Shown here: piece by piece, positions 31,402-42,208 of the stretch
Layout: each line of letters starts with the position of its first letter
Numbering within the stretch: position 1 is the first letter of the stretch
From: an uncultured Bacteroidales bacterium
Lineage (GTDB): Bacteria > Bacteroidota > Bacteroidia > Bacteroidales > Bacteroidaceae
Direction of reading: 5' to 3'
NCBI GenBank assembly: GCA_902787575.1
Contig: CADAGX010000021.1
Coordinates: 1-47,182, forward strand
Length of the DNA stretch: 47,182 nt
Translations under genes and position numbers: made by a program
Notes under the pieces: model-generated
Databases searched by the model: none
What the model was told of the DNA's origin: nothing
Seen by the model: only the letters and a program-made list of their open reading frames with translations

Positions 31402-31458
31402 AGCAGCCTCCTCCCCGTCCTTCCCCGAGAGAAGGGCTTGTGAATGGAGCCATGGACT
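31402..31458. repeat. Repeat in the rubredoxin - dxs gap
   Basis: A GC-rich inverted block (CCTCCTCCCCG...GAGAGAAGGGCTT, 31407-31440) is followed by a short ACTATGG-type run. An upstream ATG at 31444 falls in this repeat, so I start dxs at 31459. Confidence 0.6.
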
Positions 31459-33384
31459 ATGGAAAATAAAGATTCGCTGAAGGAATCGTTGCTCGACAAG
31501 ATAAATCTGCCCTGCGATCTGCGGCAGTTGCCCGTCGAGGCACTGCCACAGGTATGCGACGAATTGCGCCAAGTCATCATCCGCGAGATGTCCGACAACC
31601 CGGGCCACTTCGCCAGTTCTCTGGGCGTTGTGGAACTGACCGTTGCCCTGCACTACGTCTTCAACACGCCCTTCGACCGCATCGTCTGGGACGTGGGACA
31701 TCAGGCCAGCGGCCATAAGATACTGACGGGGAGGCGCAAGCAGTTCCACACCTACCGTCATCTGGGCGGACTTCGGCCATTCCCCTCGCCCGACGAAAGC
31801 GAGTACGACACCTTCTCATGCGGGCACGCTTCGAATAGCATCTCCGCCGCACTGGGAATGGCAGTGGCTGCTCACCAAAAGGGCGAGACGCAGCGACGCG
31901 TAGTGGCCGTCATCGGAGACGGAAGCATGAGTGGCGGCCTGGCTTTCGAAGGGCTGAACAACGTCAGTTCGACGCCGAACGACCTGCTCATCATCCTTAA
32001 CGACAACAACATGAGCATCGACCACAGCGTCGGCGGCCTGAAGCATTATCTGCATCAACTGCACACAAGTCCCACATACAACCGCATCCGCTTCCAGACG
32101 GCACAGCGACTTTTCCGCTGGGGCGTACTGAACGACGAGCGCCGCAAGCGTATCATCCGCTTCAACAACTCGCTGAAGTCGCTGCTTACCAATCAGCGCA
32201 ACATTTTCGAAGGGCTGGACATCCGCTACTTCGGACCGTCGGACGGGCACAACGTGGTGGAACTGGTGGAGACACTGCGCAGCATCAAGGATATGCAAGG
32301 TCCGAAACTGCTGCACATACACACCGTCAAGGGAAAAGGCTTTGGCCCTGCCGAGCGCGACGCCACCGAGTGGCACGCGCCGGGACGTTTCAATCCCGAG
32401 ACGGGCGAGCAAATAAAATCGGAGGCTGCGGGCCTGCCGCCCAAATATCAGGATGTGTTTGGCGAGACGCTGCTCGAACTGGCACGCGCCGACGAACGTA
32501 TCGTAGGTGTCACGCCCGCCATGCCCACCGGCTGCAGCATGAACCTGCTGATGCACGAGATGCCGGAGCGCGCCTTCGACGTGGGCATTGCCGAAGGACA
32601 CGCCGTCACTTTCTCGGGCGGCATGGCCAAAGACGGACTTATCCCATTCTGCAACATCTATTCCTCTTTCGCCCAGCGCGCCTACGATCACATCATACAC
32701 GACGTGGCGCTGCAACGCCTGCACGTCGTCTTCTGCTGGGACCGCGCCGGGCTGGTGGGACAAGACGGGCCGACACACCACGGAGCATTCGACCTGGCTG
32801 CGCTGCGACCCATCCCTAACCTCACCATATCCTCGCCCATGAACGAGCACGAGCTGCGACGCCTCATGTTTACAGCCAGCCGCGACGGCGTGGGCCCCTT
32901 CGTGATACGCTATCCGCGCGGTCGCGGCGTGCTCACCGACTGGCGCTGCCCACTGGAGAGCGTGGAAGTGGGCACAGGCCGGCTGTTGCGCGAAGGCAGC
33001 GACATCGCAGTCTTGAGTCTCGGGCCCGTGGGCAACACGGTGGAAAAGGCACTACAGGAGATGGCAGACGAGGGTATTCACGTGGCACACTACGATATGC
33101 GCTTCCTCAAGCCCATCGACGAAGCAATCCTCAATCACGTGGGACGTAGCTTCCGCTGCATCGTCACTGTCGAAGACGGCACTGTACGTGGCGGACTTGG
33201 CAGCGCCGTGCTCGAGTACATGGCCGACCACGACATGCATCCCACCGTTCGACGCCTCGGGCTGCCCGACCGATTCGTTGAGCACGGCACGCCCGACGAG
33301 CTGTACCACATCGTCGGCATCGACAAAGACGGAATCCAGAATACGATAAACGCGCTGCTGGCGCACGGAAAACCAGAAACATGA
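31459..33384 (+). CDS. dxs: 1-deoxy-D-xylulose-5-phosphate synthase
   Basis: Dxs condenses pyruvate and glyceraldehyde 3-phosphate, the first step of the MEP isoprenoid pathway, using thiamine diphosphate. The 641-residue protein shows [17 protein letters not shown], the ThDP motif [16 protein letters not shown]...[19 protein letters not shown], the transketolase pyrimidine domain ([30 protein letters not shown]) and the C-terminal domain. ATG 31459 ([16 protein letters not shown]) fits the family better than ATG 31444, which adds five repeat-encoded residues. The stop overlaps the trkA start as ATGA, so the two are translationally coupled. Confidence 0.95.
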
Positions 33385-34775
33385 AAATAGTAATTGCCGG
33401 AGCGGGAGCCGTGGGAACACATTTGGCTAAGCTTCTTTCGAAGGAAGACCAAGACATAATTCTCATAGACGAAGACCCCGAAAAAACTGCGAGACTCAAC
33501 AACGAGGGAAACTACGACCTGCTCACCCTCAACGTCTCGCCAACCAGCATCAGCGGACTGAAGGAAGCCGGCGTACCACATGCCGACCTCTTCATAGCAG
33601 TCACGCCCGACGAGACGCGAAACCTGACATGCTGCATGCTGGCTCACACACTTGGTGCCCGAAAGACGGTAGCGCGCGTAGATAACGCCGAATACGTGGA
33701 GCCGCAATACGTAACCATCTTCCAAAAGATGGGAATCGACTCCATCATCTATCCCGAACGACTGGCCGCACTCGAAATACTGGACGGCCTGAAGCGCTCG
33801 TGGGTCCGCCAATACTGGGAAGTACACGACGGCGCACTCATCATGCTCGGAATAAAACTTCGCGAAAGCGCCCACATACTCAACATTCCACTGAAGGAAC
33901 TTTGCAAACCTGGGACGCCATACCACGTGGTAGCCATCAAGCGCGACGACGACACAATTATCCCGGGCGGCAACGACATGTTGCTGCTGCAGGACATTGT
34001 CTACTTCATGACAACGAAGAAATACATCACCTACATTCGCGAGCAGGTAGGCAAGGAGAACTATGCCGACGTGAAGAACGTGATGATTATGGGCGGCGGA
34101 CGCAGCACCGTGAACGTGGTACACGGCAAACCCGATTACATGACCATGAAAATCATAGAGCAGAGCGAGGAACGCTGCATCCGGCTGACTGAATTGCTGG
34201 ACGACAATGACGTCCGCATCATTCAGGGCGACGGGCGCGACACGCATCTGCTGGTGGACGAAGGCATACGCGACATGCAGGCATTTGCCGCACTGACACC
34301 CGAAACGGAGACAAACATACTGGCGTGTCTGGCCGCCAAGCGCATGGGCGTAAGAAAAACCGTGGCGCTGGTGGAAAACACAGATTATGTGACGATGGCC
34401 GAGAAACTCGACATCGGAACCATCATCAACAAGAAGATGATTGCCGCCAGTCACATCTACCAAATGATGCTCGACACGGACGTGGCAAACGTCAAGTGCC
34501 TGACAATCGCCAATGCTGACGTGGCAGAATTTATAGTGAACGAAGGAAGTATTGTCACTCAGGGTGCCGTGAAAAATCTGCGCTTGCCACAAGGAGTAAC
34601 GTTGGGCGGTCTCGTGCGCGACGGCGTCGGCTATCTGATAAATGGTAACACAGAATTGCAAGCCGGCGACAGTGTCGTGGTATTCTGTATAAGCGGCCTC
34701 ATCAAGAAGCTCGACCGCTATTTCTGCAAGCCCACTTCGTCCATCAGCCGCCTGATGTCGGCTCTGAGCAACTGA
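33381..34775 (+). CDS. trkA: Trk potassium uptake regulatory protein TrkA, with altered C-terminus
   Basis: A 464-residue cytoplasmic NAD(H)-binding RCK protein that gates the TrkH/TrkG potassium channel. It has two TrkA_N/TrkA_C pairs: [17 protein letters not shown] at residues 3-19 with acidic E/D partners, and a second Rossmann start [16 protein letters not shown] near residue 234. Both RCK-C domains are visible. The family normally ends shortly after [17 protein letters not shown]. Here another 16 residues ([16 protein letters not shown]) follow, encoded antisense to the tail of the convergent DUF4435 gene (58-base overlap). The usual partner trkH does not follow. Confidence 0.92.
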
Positions 34776-35722
34776 TACGGCGCGCTGTCTTTGTAGCCAG
34801 TCCCTTTTCGTAGCATCACGTCCACCGGGCACTGGCTGTGCTGGTAGCTCGAAAGTTCGTTCTGGCGCTGCGTTTCGTGAACGGCCAGCCGCGTGATTTC
34901 TTTCTCACGCTCTTTCCGCAGCATCGTACAGAGGGGACCCAGCACGCACATCACCACATTGTCGAAAAGTGTGTGTCCCTGCATGTATAGGTAACTTGTC
35001 TCGGGCGTCAGTCCCAGGTCGAGAAGTTGCTGCCGCAGTGGTGCATAAGTTTTCTTGCCCTGCGGGAAGTGGCGTTGCAGCCATGCTATTTTCTTGTTCA
35101 CCTTGCGCCGCACGTATTCCAGCATGTCCTGCGGGTGATAAGGATTGATGTCTTTCAGCGACGCCGTCTCACAGAAATCAGAAAGTGTGAATGCCTTGTA
35201 GCGGTCGTAGCGGTAGCACCAGACGCTCCATACCAGCAGCGGCCAGACGATGACACTATATTCGGTGAAGAACTCCTCGAAATTCAGCACTTCGCGGTCG
35301 TTGAGCGTGCTCATTACGCACGTAGTATGCAACGAAGGCGCGTAACATTGGTAGTTTTCTATCGCGTAGGCGTAGGTATGAAAGACGTAAGGATTGTAGC
35401 AAACGAAGCGGCTCACCTCGTTTTGTCCCTGCAGCAACCAGTCGTAGTCGGCGTCGACGCAGGCAATCATGTAGCGGCCAAGTCCGGCGCCAAGCTTATT
35501 CATCAGTGCTGTCTTCTTGCCGCGTGTCAGATTTGTGCGGCTGGGAAGCATCACCTCGAAGTACACTTTGTCTGTTTCGAACTCCTGCAGGACGCTTCGC
35601 CAGAAGAAGACATCGTCGTAGCTCTCCACGTATGCCACAATCTTCTGCCGCGCCCGGCTCGGACGCAGGCGGTTGGCGGACGCGATGTAGGCGCTGTTCA
35701 GATTATCATGGAGACGCGACAC
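34718..35722 (-). CDS. DUF4435 protein with TOPRIM-like motifs (AriB-like)
   Basis: A 334-residue protein starting at GTG 35722; no ATG lies near the domain start. The TOPRIM pattern is visible: IVAYVESYDD with E33, then YMIACVDADYD with D90, D92 and D94. The middle holds AIENYQCY. DUF4435 proteins are the predicted TOPRIM nuclease partner of ABC-type ATPases; AriB in the PARIS anti-phage system is of this class. It is the third gene of the TIR-like/ATPase operon, 50 bases after the ATPase stop. Its 3' end overlaps trkA by 58 bases in convergent orientation. Assignment to defence is inference. Confidence 0.75.
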   Translation of the reverse strand: MSRLHDNLNSAYIASANRLRPSRARQKIVAYVESYDDVFFWRSVLQEFETDKVYFEVMLPSRTNLTRGKKTALMNKLGAGLGRYMIACVDADYDWLLQGQNEVSRFVCYNPYVFHTYAYAIENYQCYAPSLHTTCVMSTLNDREVLNFEEFFTEYSVIVWPLLVWSVWCYRYDRYKAFTLSDFCETASLKDINPYHPQDMLEYVRRKVNKKIAWLQRHFPQGKKTYAPLRQQLLDLGLTPETSYLYMQGHTLFDNVVMCVLGPLCTMLRKEREKEITRLAVHETQRQNELSSYQHSQCPVDVMLRKGTGYKDSAPYQLLRADIRRLMDEVGLQK

Positions 35723-35772
35723 GGTGATAACTGCTTACAATTACAAAAACAAGTTCTGAAACTCCGGATGCC

Positions 35773-36588
35773 TCACGACACGATGTCCTCCACATCTGTG
35801 ACACAGTCGGCCCAGCCGTCCATAATTACGGCGGGGCTATGTGTGGTGAGGATTATCTGCGCATTGGGATTCAGGTCGCGCACCAGTCCGATGAGCCGCT
35901 GCTGCCACTCTACGTGAAGACTCACCTCGGGCTCGTCCATGAAGAGCACGCAATGATGTCTGTTCTGCACCAGCACCGTCAGCAGTATGATGAGCATCTG
36001 TTTTTCTCCGCTGGAGAGTTTGTAGGACGAGATGGTCTCGCCAAGCGATTCGAAGTATATTTCGTTCTTGTCGCGCCGTATCTGCTTGCCCGTCTCCTTA
36101 AACAGGTCATCCACGAGGTCGAGGAAATGCGTTTTCTCCTGTGCTATCTCGTGAGCCATCTCTTGAGCCCGCGGATTCTGGCTGGTGAAAAGTTCTACGA
36201 TGCGGTTGCTCTGGTTCACCTGATAATCCAGATACTTCCGCTGAAGCGTATAGAGTTGGAAGTCGAGTTCCGTCTGCAGATGAGTATCCGTTATCTTGTT
36301 CAGCACCTCGTCCGAGAGCAACGGTTTGTCGAACGAACGGATTACATCGAAGTCCACGCTCCGTGCCTCCTCGGGGAAGAACGTGAGTTTTACACCTTCG
36401 AGGCGACGCTCCAGACGGCTGATGGTGAGAAGCTGCTTCACCACACGGCTCAGAATCGTGCTCTTGCCCACTCCATTCACGCCGCTCAATATATTCACGT
36501 CTGGCCGCAGCGTCCACACCACGTGTCGCTGGCCGTTCCACAACGAATCTATTTCGATGCTCTGTATGTATTCTCCGTGTTCTTTCAT
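35773..36588 (-). CDS. SMC/ABC-type AAA ATPase (AriA-like, short)
   Basis: A 271-residue ATPase. Walker A is GVNGVGKST (residues 36-44), the ABC signature is LSSGEKQ (191-197), Walker B is VLFMDEPE with D218/E219, and the switch histidine is H250 in TTHSPAV. A helical insertion of about 100 residues separates the halves, as in AAA_15/AAA_21 and OLD-type ATPases. I start at ATG 36588 (MKEHGEYIQSIEID), since the longer frame runs into the upstream gene. It lies 8 bases after the TIR-like stop. PARIS AriA proteins are the closest functional idea, but as I recall they are longer, so this would be a reduced form. Confidence 0.8.
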   Translation of the reverse strand: MKEHGEYIQSIEIDSLWNGQRHVVWTLRPDVNILSGVNGVGKSTILSRVVKQLLTISRLERRLEGVKLTFFPEEARSVDFDVIRSFDKPLLSDEVLNKITDTHLQTELDFQLYTLQRKYLDYQVNQSNRIVELFTSQNPRAQEMAHEIAQEKTHFLDLVDDLFKETGKQIRRDKNEIYFESLGETISSYKLSSGEKQMLIILLTVLVQNRHHCVLFMDEPEVSLHVEWQQRLIGLVRDLNPNAQIILTTHSPAVIMDGWADCVTDVEDIVS

Positions 36589-36596
36589 AGGGTAGG

Positions 36597-37124
36597 TTAG
36601 AATATTGTGGTTGAACTCCAAGGGAAGAGGCCGTCGCGCAGCGAATATGCGCTGAGGGCTCGCTCCAGTTTGTCTTTCGTAAGCGGGATGTGGCACATGC
36701 GGGCACTGTCGCGACCTATGTATTTCCGAATCTTGGCCGGAAGCCACGTCCAGTATTGCTCGATGGTCTGCTCATCTACGGCATCGAGACCGGCATAACA
36801 CACGATAACGGGCAGGTGAAAGCGGTTCACGGCACGGCTGATTTGCCAATTCAGGATTTCCGAATCCACATTTGTGACGGGCGAAGCTACAACCAGCAGG
36901 TTGTCGGCCTGCGAAAGCTTGGCCACGAACTTCGTTTTGAGCGTGCTCACCACCATATCATTGTACAGCGCGCTGAAATCTATTTCCTGCGTATTGAGGA
37001 AACGGAACCGCTGCGGGTAGTCGCGCTGCAACACCTCGAGTTGCCTGAACGTGTGCAGGTTGCTGTTCACCGGGTCTATCACGCCGTAAGCATCAAAGGC
37101 GATGTATGTCTGGTGGCTGTTCAT
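36597..37124 (-). CDS. TIR-like (DUF1863/Thoeris-type fold) candidate, first gene of ATPase-DUF4435 operon
   Basis: A 175-residue protein that I assign to the TIR-like class by pattern: a first strand ending in YIAFDAYG (residues 7-14), then a linker, STLKTKFVAKLSQADNLLVVASPVT (60-84), ILNWQISRAV (90-99) and LPVIVCYAG. This order (IAFD; helix; VLLV; WEI; PIIAV) is typical of the DUF1863 TIR-like family. The usual glutamate of WEI is Q94 here, so NAD hydrolysis may be lost. Start at ATG 37124, just after the promoter TTTG-N20-TAACTTTG (37149-37180). A longer open frame upstream is noise. No membrane segment is seen. Confidence 0.55.
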   Translation of the reverse strand: MNSHQTYIAFDAYGVIDPVNSNLHTFRQLEVLQRDYPQRFRFLNTQEIDFSALYNDMVVSTLKTKFVAKLSQADNLLVVASPVTNVDSEILNWQISRAVNRFHLPVIVCYAGLDAVDEQTIEQYWTWLPAKIRKYIGRDSARMCHIPLTKDKLERALSAYSLRDGLFPWSSTTIF

Positions 37125-37148
37125 CTCTGTTTTTTTCTTGCGCCACCA

Positions 37149-37180
37149 CAAAGTTAAGGTTCTTTCCGCAAATATGCAAA
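37149..37180 (-). promoter_or_regulatory. Promoter of the TIR-like/ATPase/DUF4435 operon
   Basis: On the minus strand, TTTG (37177-37180), a 20-base spacer and TAACTTTG (37149-37156). The ATG at 37124 is 24 bases downstream. The box lies back-to-back with that of the helicase gene. Confidence 0.7.
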
Positions 37181-37210
37181 CAAATGTGGCACGGCGCGAA
37201 AAAAAATGCG

Positions 37211-37218
37211 TAATTTTG
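37211..37218 (+). promoter_or_regulatory. -7 promoter box of the helicase gene, inside its longest frame
   Basis: TAATTTTG followed by CATCC and GTG. It overlaps codons 2-5 of the frame that starts at ATG 37206, so that ATG would lie upstream of the transcription start. Confidence 0.5.
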
Positions 37219-37223
37219 CATCC

Positions 37224-39107
37224 GTGATTCAGGAATTGTTGAAGCAGAAGGCGCTGTTGCAAAAAGAATACGCCTACGAGAAAGCGGAGTTCCAACGCCA
37301 GACGGAAAACATGGGAGTACCGCGCAAGGTGAAGCGTGGCCTGTGCTGGTTTCCGCTGCGTCTGGGGCATTCTTATTACAACTCGTTGGAGCAGTTGGTT
37401 GTGGAGGTGGAACGAACGGAGGCCACCGATGTGGACCATCAGTTCGAGCCGGGAAAACCAGTTGTATTCTTCGAGGAAGACGCCAGCGGGATGCTTCATT
37501 ACATGCGTTTCACGGCCCAAGTCAGTTTTGTCGAAGGCGACCGCATGGTCGTGGCGCTACCCGGTTCGGATGCAGCCACTCGCATACAGAATGCCGAGCG
37601 CGTGGGTGTGCAGCTCTATCTCGACGAGTACACCTATCGCCTGATGTTCGACGCCCTCGACCGCGTGCTGACGGCACGCAGCGGGCGGCTGGCCCAGCTG
37701 CGCGACATCATACATGCCGGAGCGCCGCTTCGCAAGTCCACCTTCCTGCCCACACGTTTCCCGTGGCTCAACCCGTCGCAGGAAGCCGCAGTGAACGAAG
37801 TATTGTGGGCGCGCGACGTGGCTGTGGTGCACGGCCCTCCGGGCACGGGAAAGACCACCACCCTGGTGGAAGCCATCTACGAGACGCTGCGACGCGAAGT
37901 GCAGGTGCTGGTGTGCGCCCAGAGCAATATGGCCGTCGACTGGATTGCCGAGAAACTTAGCGACCGCGGCGTCAGCGTTTTGCGCATCGGCAATCCCATA
38001 CGCGTCACCGACCGGATGCTCGCCGACACGTACGAACGGCGCTTCGAGGCGCATCCCTCGTATGCACAGCTGTGGGCCATCCGCCGCAGCATCCGGCAGC
38101 TCTACTCTCAGTCGGGCAGCCGCGAGGCGCGACATCAGAAAATTGCGCGCCTGCGTGAGAGAGCCACCGAACTCGAATACCAAATCAACGAAAGTCTCTT
38201 CAACGAATCGCGTGTGGTGGCCTGCACACTCACGGGCAGCGCCAACCGGCTGCTCATGGGCCGTCATTTCGGTACACTCTTCATCGACGAAGCCGCCCAG
38301 GCCATGGAGGCGGCGTGCTGGATAGCGCTGCAGAAGGCAGACCGCGTCGTGCTGGCAGGCGACCACCGGCAGTTGCCACCCACCGTCAAGTGTCCCGAGG
38401 CGCTGGCCGGCGGTCTCGACCGCACGCTCATGCAACAGATTGTCGAGTCCAAGCCGCAGTGCGTCAGCCTGCTCACCGTGCAATATCGCATGACAGACGG
38501 CATCATGCAGTTTCCCAACCGCGAGTTTTACGACGGCCAGCTAACCAGCGACCCCAGCGTGCGCCACCGCAGCATTCTCGACTGGGACACCAGTATGGAG
38601 TGGATAGATTCTTCCGCTCCGGCCACGCCGCTGGAAGACGGCAGCGAGACGACCGAGGAATGGGGCGAAGCGGAGGACGGGCTCTCGCGCGTGAATCCCG
38701 CCGAGGCACAGCTGACACTGCAGACGCTGAAGGACTACTTCCTCAAGATCGGACGCGACCGCATTCTCTACGAGCGTATCGACGTGGGTATCATCAGCCC
38801 GTACAAGGCACAAGTGCGCCTGCTGCGTCACCTGCTACGGCGCGACCCGTTCTGGAAGCCCTTCCGCCAACTCATAACCATCGACACAGTGGATGGATTT
38901 CAAGGGCAGGAACGCGATATTATCGTGCTCAGTATGGTGCGTAGCAACGAGCAGGGCGAACTGGGCTTCCTGCGCGATCTGCGCCGCATGAACGTGGCAA
39001 TCACGCGCGCACGCATGAAACTATTTCTTATTGGCGACCCCGAGACACTCTGCCGCCATCCGTTCTTCCGACGCTTGAAGCGTTACGTCGAAGACCTGTA
39101 CTGCTGA
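37224..39107 (+). CDS. UPF1/IGHMBP2-like superfamily 1 helicase
   Basis: A protein of about 627 residues. The N-terminal 150 residues form a helical/beta stalk, followed by the SF1 motor: motif I GPPGTGKTT, VLVCAQSNMAVDWIAEKL, motif II FIDEAAQAMEAACW, VLAGDHRQLPPTV, VQYRM, and motifs V/VI GFQGQERDIIVLSMVRSN...RRMNVAITRARMKLFLIGDP. It should unwind DNA or RNA; the role is unknown. I start at GTG 37224 because the upstream ATG 37206 overlaps the promoter box, and family members begin about 10 residues before the KQKALLQKEY helix. This would give an almost leaderless mRNA. It is divergent from the TIR-like operon, and a role in that system cannot be excluded. Confidence 0.88.
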   Translation: MIQELLKQKALLQKEYAYEKAEFQRQTENMGVPRKVKRGLCWFPLRLGHSYYNSLEQLVVEVERTEATDVDHQFEPGKPVVFFEEDASGMLHYMRFTAQVSFVEGDRMVVALPGSDAATRIQNAERVGVQLYLDEYTYRLMFDALDRVLTARSGRLAQLRDIIHAGAPLRKSTFLPTRFPWLNPSQEAAVNEVLWARDVAVVHGPPGTGKTTTLVEAIYETLRREVQVLVCAQSNMAVDWIAEKLSDRGVSVLRIGNPIRVTDRMLADTYERRFEAHPSYAQLWAIRRSIRQLYSQSGSREARHQKIARLRERATELEYQINESLFNESRVVACTLTGSANRLLMGRHFGTLFIDEAAQAMEAACWIALQKADRVVLAGDHRQLPPTVKCPEALAGGLDRTLMQQIVESKPQCVSLLTVQYRMTDGIMQFPNREFYDGQLTSDPSVRHRSILDWDTSMEWIDSSAPATPLEDGSETTEEWGEAEDGLSRVNPAEAQLTLQTLKDYFLKIGRDRILYERIDVGIISPYKAQVRLLRHLLRRDPFWKPFRQLITIDTVDGFQGQERDIIVLSMVRSNEQGELGFLRDLRRMNVAITRARMKLFLIGDPETLCRHPFFRRLKRYVEDLYC

Positions 39108-39206
39108 CGGCGTGCTGCCACGCGCAATTTCAGTCGCAAACGCTTGCAGTTTTCGCAAAAAAGCACGTACTTTGTAGAGCAAGTAAACCCAGAAAACGCA
39201 GAAACC

Positions 39207-39716
39207 ATGTTCAAAGACCTCTGTGCTGCACGCTATAGTTGCCGTTCGTACACGTCGCAACCTGTGGAACGAGAGAAACTACAGTATATTATGGAGTGTG
39301 TGCGGCTGGCTCCCAGCGCTGTAAATCGCCAGCCGTGGCGCTTCGTCGTGGTGGACGACGAGCGGCTGCAGATTCTCTATCGGGCGTATGCGCGCGATTG
39401 GATTCGCACCGCGCCGGCCATCATTGTCTGTCTGGCCGAAAAGACGGCTGCCTGGGTGCGGCCCTCCGACGGGAAAAATCACGCGGACGTGGACGTGGCC
39501 ATCGCCACGGAGCACCTGGTGCTGGCGGCGGCTGAGCAGGGACTGGGAACCTGCTGGGTCTGCAACTTCGATGCGCCGCTCTTGGCGGCGGAGTTTCCCG
39601 TGCCAGCCGGATTCGAGGCCGTGGCGCTGATTCCCATCGGCTATCCCGCAGACACGGCCACGCCCAAGAAGCGCAAAGAGGCAGCCGAGATTTGGGAACT
39701 CCCAGCCGAAAAATAA
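39207..39716 (+). CDS. Nitroreductase family protein
   Basis: A 169-residue FMN-dependent oxidoreductase. The family start is ARYSCRSYTSQPVEREKLQYIMECVRLAPSAVNRQPWRFVVV (residues 7-48, flavin-binding RxSxRxY and the SAxNxQPW segment). DVDVAIATEHLVLAAAEQGLGTCWVCNFD and IPIGYPA follow. ATG 39207 (MFKDLCAARYSCRSY) is right; the frame from 39144 adds non-family residues. Natural substrates of this short subgroup are not known. It is followed 25 bases later by the TIM-barrel gene, so both are probably one transcript. Confidence 0.9.
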   Translation: MFKDLCAARYSCRSYTSQPVEREKLQYIMECVRLAPSAVNRQPWRFVVVDDERLQILYRAYARDWIRTAPAIIVCLAEKTAAWVRPSDGKNHADVDVAIATEHLVLAAAEQGLGTCWVCNFDAPLLAAEFPVPAGFEAVALIPIGYPADTATPKKRKEAAEIWELPAEK

Positions 39717-39741
39717 GAAAACAGACCAAAAAAATATAGCT

Positions 39742-40629
39742 ATGAAAAGAAGAGATTTTCTGAGAACAGGTGTGGCCGCATCCGCCGCACTGGCATTGCC
39801 GCAGAACTTGGTGGCAGCCGCGCCCGGCGACATCCCGGCCAGCAAGAACTCCACCTACGAGCGCCGACAGCGGCAAGAGCCGTTCCATCTGGGAATGGCG
39901 GGCTACACATTCCGACACTTCGACATCGACCAGGCGTTGGCCTTCATGAAGCGGCTCGACGTGCACTATCTTTGCATTAAAGACTTCCACCTGCCGCTCG
40001 AAGCCTCAGCCGAGCAGATTGCAGCCTTCAAGCAGAAACTGGCCGAGGCCGGAGTGGTGGGCTACGGCGTGGGACCCATCTACATGAAGAGCGAGGCAGA
40101 AGTAGACCGGGCCTTCGCTTATGCAAAACGTGTGGGCGTGAGCCTGCTCGTCGGCGTGCCGAACTATGAGTTGCTCGACTACGCAGAAAAAGCGGTGAAG
40201 CAATACGACATCCGTCTGGCCATCCATCTACACGGCCCCGACATGAAGGTGCAGGGTTCGGACCGTTTCCTTTATCCAGATGCAACCGACATCTGGGAGA
40301 ATATCAAGGACCGCGACCCGCGCATGGGCATGTGCCTGGACATCGGCCACAACCTGCGCTACGGAAGCGACTCGCTGCGCGACCTGAAACGATACCACAC
40401 ACGCGTCTTTGACATGCACATGAAGGACGTTACGGGCAATACCAAGGCCGACCGCTCGGTGGAGCTGGGACGCGGTGTCATCGACTTTTCGGAATACGTA
40501 CGCCTGATGCGCAAGGTAGGATACGTCGGTTCTGTCAGTCTGGAGTACGAGAAGGATATGAAGGACCCGTTCTTTGGCATCTGCGAGAGCGTGGGTTACT
40601 TCCGCGGCATCTGCGCAGCTACAAAATAA
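39742..40629 (+). CDS. Exported sugar phosphate isomerase/epimerase-like TIM-barrel protein
   Basis: A 295-residue protein with a twin-arginine-like signal (KRRDFLRTGVAASAALALPQNLVAAAPG). The AP endonuclease family 2/xylose isomerase-like barrel follows: GMAGYTFRHFD, LCIKDFHLPL, GVGPIYMK, LAIHLHGPD, MGMCLDIGHNLRYG, VFDMHMKDV and VSLEYEKDM. The metal ligands expected at the strand ends (E/D/H) are mostly visible, with H in LAIHLHG and D in CLDIGH. The sugar substrate is unknown. This type is often found in periplasmic sugar-conversion loci of Bacteroidota. A long stem that looks like a terminator follows at 40651-40686. Confidence 0.88.
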   Translation: MKRRDFLRTGVAASAALALPQNLVAAAPGDIPASKNSTYERRQRQEPFHLGMAGYTFRHFDIDQALAFMKRLDVHYLCIKDFHLPLEASAEQIAAFKQKLAEAGVVGYGVGPIYMKSEAEVDRAFAYAKRVGVSLLVGVPNYELLDYAEKAVKQYDIRLAIHLHGPDMKVQGSDRFLYPDATDIWENIKDRDPRMGMCLDIGHNLRYGSDSLRDLKRYHTRVFDMHMKDVTGNTKADRSVELGRGVIDFSEYVRLMRKVGYVGSVSLEYEKDMKDPFFGICESVGYFRGICAATK

Positions 40630-40650
40630 AGCGCTGCAGGGCATAGACGA

Positions 40651-40686
40651 TGAGCCGGCAATCTGACATCTCAGGTTGCCGGCTCA
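40651..40686. terminator. Bidirectional terminator hairpin
   Basis: A 16-base stem (TGAGCCGGCAATCTGA with its complement, one G-U pair) with a CATC loop, followed by TATTTT on the plus strand. It sits between the convergent TIM-barrel and methyltransferase genes. Confidence 0.8.
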
Positions 40687-40708
40687 CTATTTTGCTGTCG
40701 AATACCGA

Positions 40709-41413
40709 CTACTTCCCGATGAGAAAAATGGCCGGCACCTTGCTCAGGTCGGGCAGCGTGTCGCGCTTCCAGGCCTGAATCGTCTTGGTGCGAATCCACT
40801 CGTCGGGCGTCGTTATACCGGCCGCCACACAGAGCCGTGTCTGCGGCCGCAAGTGCTGCAGCGCAGCATCGAACATTTTTTTGTTGCGATACGGTGTCTC
40901 GATGAAGAGCTGCGTCTGACCTTCGTTCCACGCCCGCGACTCCAGCGCCTTCAGTCGCCAAGCCCGCTCGTCGGGCGGCACAGGTAGATAGCCGTTGAAG
41001 GCAAACGACTGCCCGTTGAGTCCGCTGGCCATCACTGCCAAAATCATGCTGCTGGGGCCGACAAGCGGCACCACACGGTAGCCACGCTGTTGGGCAAGCG
41101 CCACCACCAGCGCGCCAGGGTCGGCAACCGCCGGACAACCGGCCTCGCTGATGACGCCCACGCTTTGACCCTCAGCCAATGGGCGGAGACATTCCGAGAA
41201 TTGCCCTTCGGCATGCTTGCCCATCTCGTAAAACCGACAATCGTCGATGGGAAACTCGCGGTCCATGCGGCGCAAGAAACGCCGAGCCGTGCGAATCTCC
41301 TCCACCACAAAGTGCCGTATCTCGCTCACCACCTCACGGTTCCAAGCCGGCAGCACACGTTCGTGCGGTGTGTCGCCCAGCGTCACTGGAATAAGATACA
41401 ATGCTGCTTCCAT
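40709..41413 (-). CDS. SAM-dependent methyltransferase, RsmI-like (tetrapyrrole methylase fold)
   Basis: A 234-residue protein of the tetrapyrrole methylase superfamily. It begins EAALYLIPVTLGDTP, then VGVISEAGCPAVADPGALVVALAQQ (SAM-binding P-loop region, about residues 85-110), VPLVGPSSMILAVMASGLNGQSFAFNGYLP and FIETPYRNKKMF. The last two resemble RsmI, which 2'-O-methylates C1402 of 16S rRNA. It is shorter at the C-terminus and may be the second RsmI-like paralogue common in Bacteroidota, so I give no gene symbol. The start is ATG 41413, since the preceding codon is GTG. A TACCTTTG promoter box lies at 41434-41441. Confidence 0.85.
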   Translation of the reverse strand: MEAALYLIPVTLGDTPHERVLPAWNREVVSEIRHFVVEEIRTARRFLRRMDREFPIDDCRFYEMGKHAEGQFSECLRPLAEGQSVGVISEAGCPAVADPGALVVALAQQRGYRVVPLVGPSSMILAVMASGLNGQSFAFNGYLPVPPDERAWRLKALESRAWNEGQTQLFIETPYRNKKMFDAALQHLRPQTRLCVAAGITTPDEWIRTKTIQAWKRDTLPDLSKVPAIFLIGK

Positions 41414-41433
41414 CACTTGCTGTTTTTCGTGTA

Positions 41434-41441
41434 CAAAGGTA
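41434..41441 (-). promoter_or_regulatory. -7 promoter box of the RsmI-like gene
   Basis: TACCTTTG on the minus strand, 20 bases before the ATG. Confidence 0.6.
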
Positions 41442-41494
41442 CGGAAAGTCGAGCGCAGAACAAAAGAAAATGCGGTTTTCTTTCCGTTTCACAC

Positions 41495-42208
41495 TTATCT
41501 ACCTTCGCCACGCAACTCGTAGGAGGCATCGTTGCGAGCTACGATGCGGAGCGAGGTGTGTTTGTCGAGCACCGGCCGCAGACGCGACACGAGGCGATAG
41601 AGTGTCTCGCTGGCATCGGGTTTTCCGGGCCACAGCGATGCGCTGATTTCGTGCTGTGTGAGCCGGTGGTTCGGAGAGCAGAAAAACATTTCCATCAGGT
41701 GGCGCTGCATGGGTGTGAAGGTGACTTCGCTGCCATTGGCTGCATAAAAGCAATGCTGGGACGCCTCGTAGGAAAGGCCGCCCATCGTGGGCAGCAAAGT
41801 GCGAGGCACTGTGCGCCCTGTCAGCAGCCACCACAACAAGGCGAGGGCAGCCAGCAAGCCCGACATGCGCTGATCGGAAAGGCGCAGCACGGTGGCAGCG
41901 GAGCAGCCGGCCTCGGCCACCAGCGTAACACGGTCGGCCGACATGGCAGCTGCCTGCCGGAGGGCTATGTATGCCGTGTCGCGCACCAGCGGCTGACTGA
42001 TGTGGCTGCGATAGACGCGCAGCGTGTCGGCATCCAAGGTGTGCGACTGATGCTCGGCAAGCGTCTGGGTCAAGGCGCAACGCACGTCGGCCTGAATGCA
42101 GAGCAACTGGGCGCGATAACTGGCAATGGCAGCCGTCAGCGACGTGGCCAGCAGCAAGACGAACACCGCAAGGGCTGGAGCGACAGAATGTAGGCGACGA
42201 TTCTTCAT
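41495..42208 (-). CDS. Membrane-anchored winged-helix transcriptional regulator
   Basis: A 237-residue protein with two membrane segments (residues 9-29 and 115-131), a loop of about 85 residues between them that should face the periplasm, and a C-terminal OmpR/PhoB-type winged helix (about 150-235; TPMQRHLMEMFFCSPNHRLTQHEISASLWPG, then YRLVSRLRPVLDKHTSLRIV). The DNA-binding part lies after the second segment, so it is cytoplasmic. The arrangement recalls ToxR/CadC one-component sensors but with reversed domain order. The signal and targets are unknown. The promoter box TAATTTTG is at 42235-42242, divergent from the SGNH gene. Confidence 0.85.
   Translation of the reverse strand: MKNRRLHSVAPALAVFVLLLATSLTAAIASYRAQLLCIQADVRCALTQTLAEHQSHTLDADTLRVYRSHISQPLVRDTAYIALRQAAAMSADRVTLVAEAGCSAATVLRLSDQRMSGLLAALALLWWLLTGRTVPRTLLPTMGGLSYEASQHCFYAANGSEVTFTPMQRHLMEMFFCSPNHRLTQHEISASLWPGKPDASETLYRLVSRLRPVLDKHTSLRIVARNDASYELRGEGR

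What the first reader, a model, noticed from the sequence alone, without database searches (positions are those of the whole stretch)
34718..37124. Candidate three-gene defence operon: TIR-like protein, ABC-type ATPase, DUF4435 TOPRIM-like protein
Seen: three minus-strand genes with gaps of 8 and 50 bases, one promoter (TTTG-N20-TAACTTTG), an ATPase with Walker A, ABC signature, Walker B and switch His, and a DUF4435 protein with E33 and D90/D92/D94 in TOPRIM order. Known: the PARIS anti-phage system pairs an AAA_15 ATPase (AriA) with a DUF4435 nuclease (AriB). Inference: this locus is a PARIS relative with an unusually short ATPase (271 residues) and an added TIR-like gene. The TIR-like gene has Q94 where the family has a catalytic Glu, which hints at a sensing or scaffolding role and not NADase activity. 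If the TIR-like fold holds, the combination could be an undescribed subtype.
Basis: partly seen in the sequence, partly recalled or inferred. Interest (0 to 1): 0.85.

Follow-up and report, generated by a model that had tools for sequence, protein, structure and literature searches.

The report
Core PARIS-type operon with TIR-like lead gene
A three-gene unit that looks like a bacterial anti-virus alarm (the PARIS system) has a two-gene core that nearly every sampled member of this bacterial family carries and seems to inherit like an ordinary chromosomal gene, and one branch has added a TIR-like protein whose predicted catalytic residue is replaced in nearly all copies seen.

Summary
In detail: three minus-strand genes, gaps 8 and 50, one Bacteroidota-type promoter, intact ATPase motifs, TOPRIM-order E33/D90/D92/D94. 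Sequence and predicted folds support AriA-like, AriB-like and ThsB-type TIR-like proteins. Q94 is real: Q in 50 of 51 relatives, where solved ThsB relatives have Glu. Two parts of the interpretation fail. The ATPase is not unusually short (about 270 residues is the norm here), and the pair is not patchy. AriB occurs in 285 of 301 sampled genomes of the window's family and 128 of 139 of its genus, with AriA directly upstream in 133 of 134 loci, often beside dxs-trkA, diverging in step with them under strong purifying selection. Divergent second AriAB pairs in 8 of 139 genomes are the patchy contrast; the four whose neighbours I scanned lie near restriction or defence genes. The TIR-like gene was found in the window's genus (77 of 139) and one other genus; at least 58 of the 77 have it at the operon head, and the promoter box follows the first gene. 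Best reading: a lineage-fixed, possibly domesticated, ATPase-gated TOPRIM nuclease with a catalytically dead TIR-like regulator. Function is untested.

The parts
36597..37124 (-). TIR-like gene (ThsB-type fold, 175 aa), first gene of the operon; Q94 at the catalytic-Glu column
35773..36588 (-). AriA-like ABC/OLD-type ATPase, 271 aa
   Evidence: AAA_21 70 bits, AAA_15 58 bits; PADLOC AriA PDLC04164 over the whole length, 202 bits; best PDB profile match is PARIS AriA 8ux9, 2e-18
34718..35722 (-). AriB-like DUF4435 TOPRIM protein, 334 aa, GTG start; E33, D90, D92, D94
37149..37180 (-). Bacteroidota-type promoter TTTG-N20-TAACTTTG, 24 bases before the TIR-like ATG
   Evidence: the TANNTTTG box lies within 250 bases upstream of the TIR-like gene in 49 of 53 distinct loci, of AriA behind a TIR gene in 0 of 47, of AriA without TIR in 35 of 46, of AriB in 2 of 95 (7% of shuffled stretches); the full two-box pattern in 8, 0, 13 and 0 (0.2% of shuffles)
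33381..34775 (+). trkA, convergent neighbour whose 3' end overlaps that of ariB by 58 bases
   Evidence: 34 of 47 distinct loci with convergent trkA/ariB overlap, 58 bases being the commonest value
31444..33384 (+). dxs, conserved neighbour (named by recall of the family; used as query, not profile-scanned)
37206..39107 (+). UPF1-like helicase, divergent conserved neighbour (named by recall of the family, not profile-scanned)

Best explanation
The locus is a PARIS-type AriA-AriB module that has become a fixed, apparently vertically inherited part of the chromosome in this family (by inference GTDB Bacteroidaceae), with a TIR-like gene at the operon head in much of one genus. Shown: homology and folds, intact ATPase and TOPRIM residues, near-universal presence in the samples, conserved gene order in the genus and near relatives, a promoter box that follows the first gene, purifying selection, and Q at the catalytic-Glu column of the TIR-like protein in 50 of 51 sequences. 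Inferred by analogy with PARIS: AriA assembles as an ATP-dependent scaffold that holds AriB inactive and releases it on a signal, and AriB then cuts RNA (tRNA in E. coli PARIS). Inferred: the TIR-like protein cannot break NAD and instead binds a nucleotide or protein ligand and tunes AriA. Whether the trigger is a phage protein (fixed immunity) or a cellular state (domesticated stress response) is open; I lean slightly to a domesticated or dual role.
For: AriB in 128 of 139 genomes of the genus (18 of 18 at least 90% complete) and 285 of 301 of the family sample (161 of 168, 28 of 30 genera), but in only 12 of 247 genomes of an order sample at E<=1e-30, three of those in the same family. AriA directly upstream in 133 of 134 distinct AriB loci with enough sequence. 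dxs-trkA or helicase neighbours recur, also in Paraprevotella. Protein distances track TrkA and DXS (Mantel r 0.90-0.97 over 21 loci with TIR; 0.70-0.90 over 39 loci). Median dN/dS TIR 0.059, AriA 0.104, AriB 0.053 against TrkA 0.029, DXS 0.037. No match in 50,697 phage records. Eight of 139 genomes carry a second AriB of 23-33% identity; in the four loci where I scanned one chosen neighbour each, these match PglX, a type II methylase, a type II restriction enzyme and PD-T4-4_A. Promoter switch. ThsB E85Q is the laboratory catalytic mutant (PMC10022894, passages).
Against: No experiment. It meets the published PARIS detection rule, and a B. thetaiotaomicron PARIS is reported as transcribed (PMC12135933, passages; not shown to be this locus). 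Seven of 168 high-quality family genomes lack AriB, and seven printed matches are flagged with in-frame stops, so it is probably dispensable. The distance correlations use loci that still lie by trkA and dxs, which favours vertical ones. All three genes have higher dN/dS than TrkA and DXS. Two plasmid records carry 51-52% identical copies. The TIR-like gene is absent from 62 of 139 genus genomes and sits apart from AriAB in at least 15, so AriAB does not need it in cis.
Confidence: 0.55

Rival explanations
1. Lineage-fixed immunity: the core AriAB is an ordinary PARIS abortive-infection system that happens to be retained by nearly the whole family, and the TIR-like gene is an extra phage sensor or trigger adaptor.
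For: Meets the published PARIS detection rule (AAA_15/AAA_21 plus DUF4435 above cut-off; PMC9122126 methods passage; our scores); fold match to PARIS AriB; ThsB proteins are described as sensors of infection in Thoeris (PMC11204291, start of abstract in a listing); losses occur.
Against: Published PARIS was found in 5.2% of genomes (PMC9122126 section 9); here it is near-universal in one family, in housekeeping context, with low dN/dS, unlike the second pairs of the same genus (8 of 139; the four scanned lie near defence genes).
Confidence: 0.4
2. The TIR-like gene is only a neighbour: it is co-transcribed by chance after landing between ariA and the helicase and acts on its own.
For: It is missing from 62 of 139 genus genomes, stands apart in one clade of 15 rows (11 of the 15 near a GH92 gene), and stands alone in the four carriers of the other genus.
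Against: At least 58 of 77 carriers keep it at the operon head over deep divergence (copies about 49-72% identical to the window's), and the promoter box sits before it and not before ariA. All 77 carriers have AriB while the 11 AriB-less genomes all lack it (Fisher p 8e-5, not corrected for kinship or incompleteness).
Confidence: 0.3
3. The TIR-like protein is still an enzyme, for example a nucleoside-phosphate N-hydrolase-like protein using Q94 differently, that makes a signal for AriA.
For: The fold also resembles DNPH1 and MilB nucleotide N-glycosidases; N75 and W93 are invariant and Q94 nearly so, as in a kept binding pocket.
Against: The column aligned with Q94 is Glu in the three solved ThsB relatives found and E85Q removes ThsB activity.
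Confidence: 0.12

Closest known systems
PARIS (AriA-AriB), E. coli B185 type
   Different: ATPase 271 versus 464 residues; near-universal in a bacterial family instead of found in 5.2% of genomes; TIR-like lead gene in one genus; trigger and target unknown
Thoeris ThsB (TIR-like)
   Same: Fold match to 3hyn, EcThsB2 8v6t and ThsB 6lhy; PADLOC ThsB 80 bits
   Different: Catalytic-Glu column holds Gln in 50 of 51; no ThsA gene in the operon
Cran1, an OLD-family ATPase-nuclease with a cell-cycle role in Saccharolobus (PMC12796447, abstract and section list)
   Same: A precedent for a defence-type OLD-family ATPase-nuclease in a core cellular role
   Different: Archaeal, single protein with nickase activity; no sequence comparison made here

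Membership tests
PARIS | ATPase over the AAA_15 or AAA_21 cut-off adjacent to a DUF4435 protein over its cut-off | tested here: met
   AAA_21 70 (27), AAA_15 58.1 (32.1), DUF4435 155.8 (27) bits, gap 50 bases; rule from PMC9122126 passage
PARIS | AriB TOPRIM fold as in the solved complex | tested here: met
PARIS | Intact ATPase motifs and TOPRIM acidic residues | tested here: met
   at least 95% conserved in 92 AriA, invariant in 96 AriB sequences
PARIS | Activation by an anti-restriction protein (Ocr), tRNA cleavage, phage protection | not testable with these tools
   no experiment possible
PARIS | Patchy, mobile-hotspot distribution (typical, not defining) | tested here: not met
   285 of 301 family genomes, housekeeping neighbours, no phage record; but two plasmid records carry 51-52% identical copies
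Thoeris ThsB | TIR-like ThsB fold | tested here: met
   Pfam ThsB_TIR itself is below its cut-off (17.3 of 21.2 bits)
Thoeris ThsB | Catalytic glutamate | tested here: not met
   Q in 50 of 51 distinct sequences; the single E is a stand-alone copy of the other genus, L036
Thoeris ThsB | Paired ThsA effector | tested here: inconclusive
   none among the three operon genes; own-genome STALD search found nothing, but its control did not ring either

The most novel reading that the evidence does not exclude
A whole family of bacteria has domesticated a PARIS-type ATPase-gated TOPRIM nuclease into a core cellular switch, and one genus has put it under a TIR-like pseudoenzyme that acts as a ligand-binding regulator, so that what annotation tools call a defence system is in fact part of ordinary physiology (or a dual alarm).
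Probability: 0.35. Interest if true: 0.85.

Novelty: new variant of a known kind. Interest (0 to 1): 0.62.

Why it matters
PARIS is known as a patchy abortive-infection system. A family-wide, vertically inherited AriAB would make the question 'when does a defence toxin become a housekeeping gene?' directly testable in genetically tractable Bacteroides, and would warn that automatic defence counts in this family may include a core gene pair. The E-to-Q change in an operon-head TIR-like protein offers a natural candidate pseudoenzyme regulator to study.

Tried and rejected
Rejected: 'unusually short ATPase'. Rejected: chance or mis-called ORFs. Rejected: plain Thoeris (Gln at the catalytic column, no ThsA in the operon).

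Tried without result: AriB sequence and profile against PDB sequences gave no AriB hit, so the fold route was used. The TIR-like profile gave no confirmed relative in viral contigs and two weak hits outside the family in an order sample (3 of 198 with the window itself). AriB in viral contigs gave one 23% hit. Rfam (33000-41500) and tRNA (whole window) scans were empty. Own-genome PF08937 and PF18185 searches found nothing, the first although the window's TIR-like gene is there, so that model is too weak for it.

Literature: searches for DUF4435 (5 papers), AriA/AriB/PARIS/ThsB, DUF4435/TIR/AAA, PARIS/tRNA/Toprim and Bacteroides or Prevotella with PARIS showed, in the listings and the passages I opened, no report of a TIR-PARIS operon or of a core AriAB. 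The two 2024 Nature structure papers are not held, supplementary files were not searched, so absence from print is not shown.

Rows dropped before counts: TIR fragments of 56 and 116 aa, AriA under 250 aa, AriB under 300 aa and duplicates; upstream stretches under 200 bases and duplicates; tblastn hits under 85% coverage or with stops; AriB loci under 150 bits or with under 1 kb upstream. The first dN/dS run mixed in distant pairs (AriB median 0.32, AriA 0.23); the filtered run is quoted. Both use a simple count method.

Full report
What is there. Three minus-strand genes lie at 34718-37124: a 175-aa TIR-like protein, a 271-aa ATPase and a 334-aa DUF4435 protein, with gaps of 8 and 50 bases. 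A Bacteroidota-type promoter (motif recalled) ends 24 bases before the first ATG. Pfam gives DUF4435 155.8 bits, AAA_21 70 bits and ThsB_TIR 17.3 bits, the last below its cut-off of 21.2; PADLOC gives AriB 193, AriA 202 over the whole ATPase, and ThsB 80 bits.

Distribution of AriAB. A search of all 139 held genomes of the window's genus found AriB in 128, and in 18 of 18 at least 90% complete. In a sample of 301 genomes of the family the profile found it in 285 (161 of 168 high-quality, 28 of 30 genera); in an order sample at E<=1e-30 in 12 of 247, three of them from the same family. The family is unnamed in the tool; I infer GTDB Bacteroidaceae because close relatives are titled Paraprevotella, Alloprevotella, Prevotellamassilia and Bacteroidaceae and a Bacteroides finegoldii record carries the pair. 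AriA lies directly upstream of AriB in 133 of 134 distinct loci; the exception, L214, is from another family of the order. Published PARIS was found in 5.2% of genomes (PMC9122126 section 9).

Context and inheritance. dxs-trkA, a UPF1-like helicase or a TIM-barrel gene flank many of the loci, including Paraprevotella clara and P. xylaniphila; trkA and ariB 3' ends overlap in 34 of 47 convergent loci. In 20 further loci from mostly other genera the pair often sits elsewhere; in 7 of these 20 an EamA-type transporter lies nearby. Protein distances of AriB, AriA and TIR follow those of TrkA and DXS (Mantel r 0.90-0.97 over 21 loci, 0.70-0.90 over 39), with the caveat that these loci were taken because they still lie by trkA and dxs. 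Median dN/dS for close pairs is 0.059 (TIR, 40 pairs), 0.104 (AriA, 108), 0.053 (AriB, 36), 0.029 (TrkA, 17) and 0.037 (DXS, 11). Eight of the 139 genus genomes carry a second AriB of 23-33% identity. All eight stretches were fetched; each has a reading frame of 241-360 aa with a P-loop-like start directly upstream, three of which were scanned and match AriA. In four of the eight loci I scanned one neighbour that looked promising: they match PglX, a type II methylase, a type II restriction enzyme and PD-T4-4_A. The neighbours of the other four were not scanned.

The TIR-like gene. It occurs in 77 of 139 genus genomes and, in the 301-genome family sample, in 18 genomes of two genera (14 and 4). 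On the contigs 56 of 77 have it next to AriB; two more, G360 and G404, have it next to AriA on a broken contig, so at least 58. Fifteen were fetched and show no AriA beside them (one, G350, lies at a contig end), and four were not fetched. The 15 form one clade (SH-aLRT 97); 11 of them have a GH92-like gene in the fetched stretch, confirmed by Pfam in L021. The four copies of the other genus stand alone. All 77 carriers have AriB and the 11 AriB-less genomes lack the TIR-like gene (Fisher p 8e-5, uncorrected for kinship and completeness). The promoter box TANNTTTG lies upstream of TIR in 49 of 53 loci, of AriA behind TIR in 0 of 47, of AriA without TIR in 35 of 46 and of AriB in 2 of 95, against 7% of shuffled stretches; the stricter two-box pattern in 8, 0, 13 and 0. 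This supports one transcript headed by the TIR-like gene.

Mechanism. By analogy with PARIS, where AriA detects Ocr and AriB cuts host tRNA (PMC12839542 passage; PMC12409363 abstract and passages), AriA most likely restrains and releases AriB. The TIR-like protein, lacking the catalytic Glu, most likely senses a ligand or protein and tunes AriA. These steps are inference. Fixed immunity and domestication both remain open; near-universal retention, housekeeping context and strong constraint tilt me slightly to a domesticated or dual role, and Cran1 is a precedent (PMC12796447, abstract and section list). Against it: absence in 7 of 168 high-quality family genomes, seven printed matches flagged with stops, dN/dS above that of TrkA and DXS, and no phenotype data.

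Verdict. New variant of a known kind: PARIS-type by the tested features, unlike published PARIS in its near-universal presence in one family and in its TIR-like lead gene.

Noticed in passing
L091 4781-5452 and L093: A 223-residue AriA, some 50 residues shorter than the rest, beside a normal AriB at the trkA site and without a TIR-like gene; the L091 copy is still a strong AAA_21 match.
   Followed up: partly
L021 7198-7725 (also L029, L030 and others): TIR-like copies that stand apart from AriAB in the genus lie near a GH92-like gene in 11 of 15 cases.
   Followed up: partly
L222 365-5859: A divergent second AriAB pair directly behind a PglX-like gene.
   Followed up: partly
L214 4710-6164: A 36% identical AriB-like protein in another family of the order, with a LuxE-like gene upstream and no AriA detected.
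   Followed up: no
L219 (NZ_OY725943.1) and OY726067.1: Two Bacteroides/Phocaeicola records called plasmids carry AriB relatives; the first, with AriA, meaB and a DMT transporter, may be a chromosome fragment.
   Followed up: no
G399:C91 and G411:C13: AriB matches come in two pieces without stops, which suggests an in-frame insert near residue 77.
   Followed up: no
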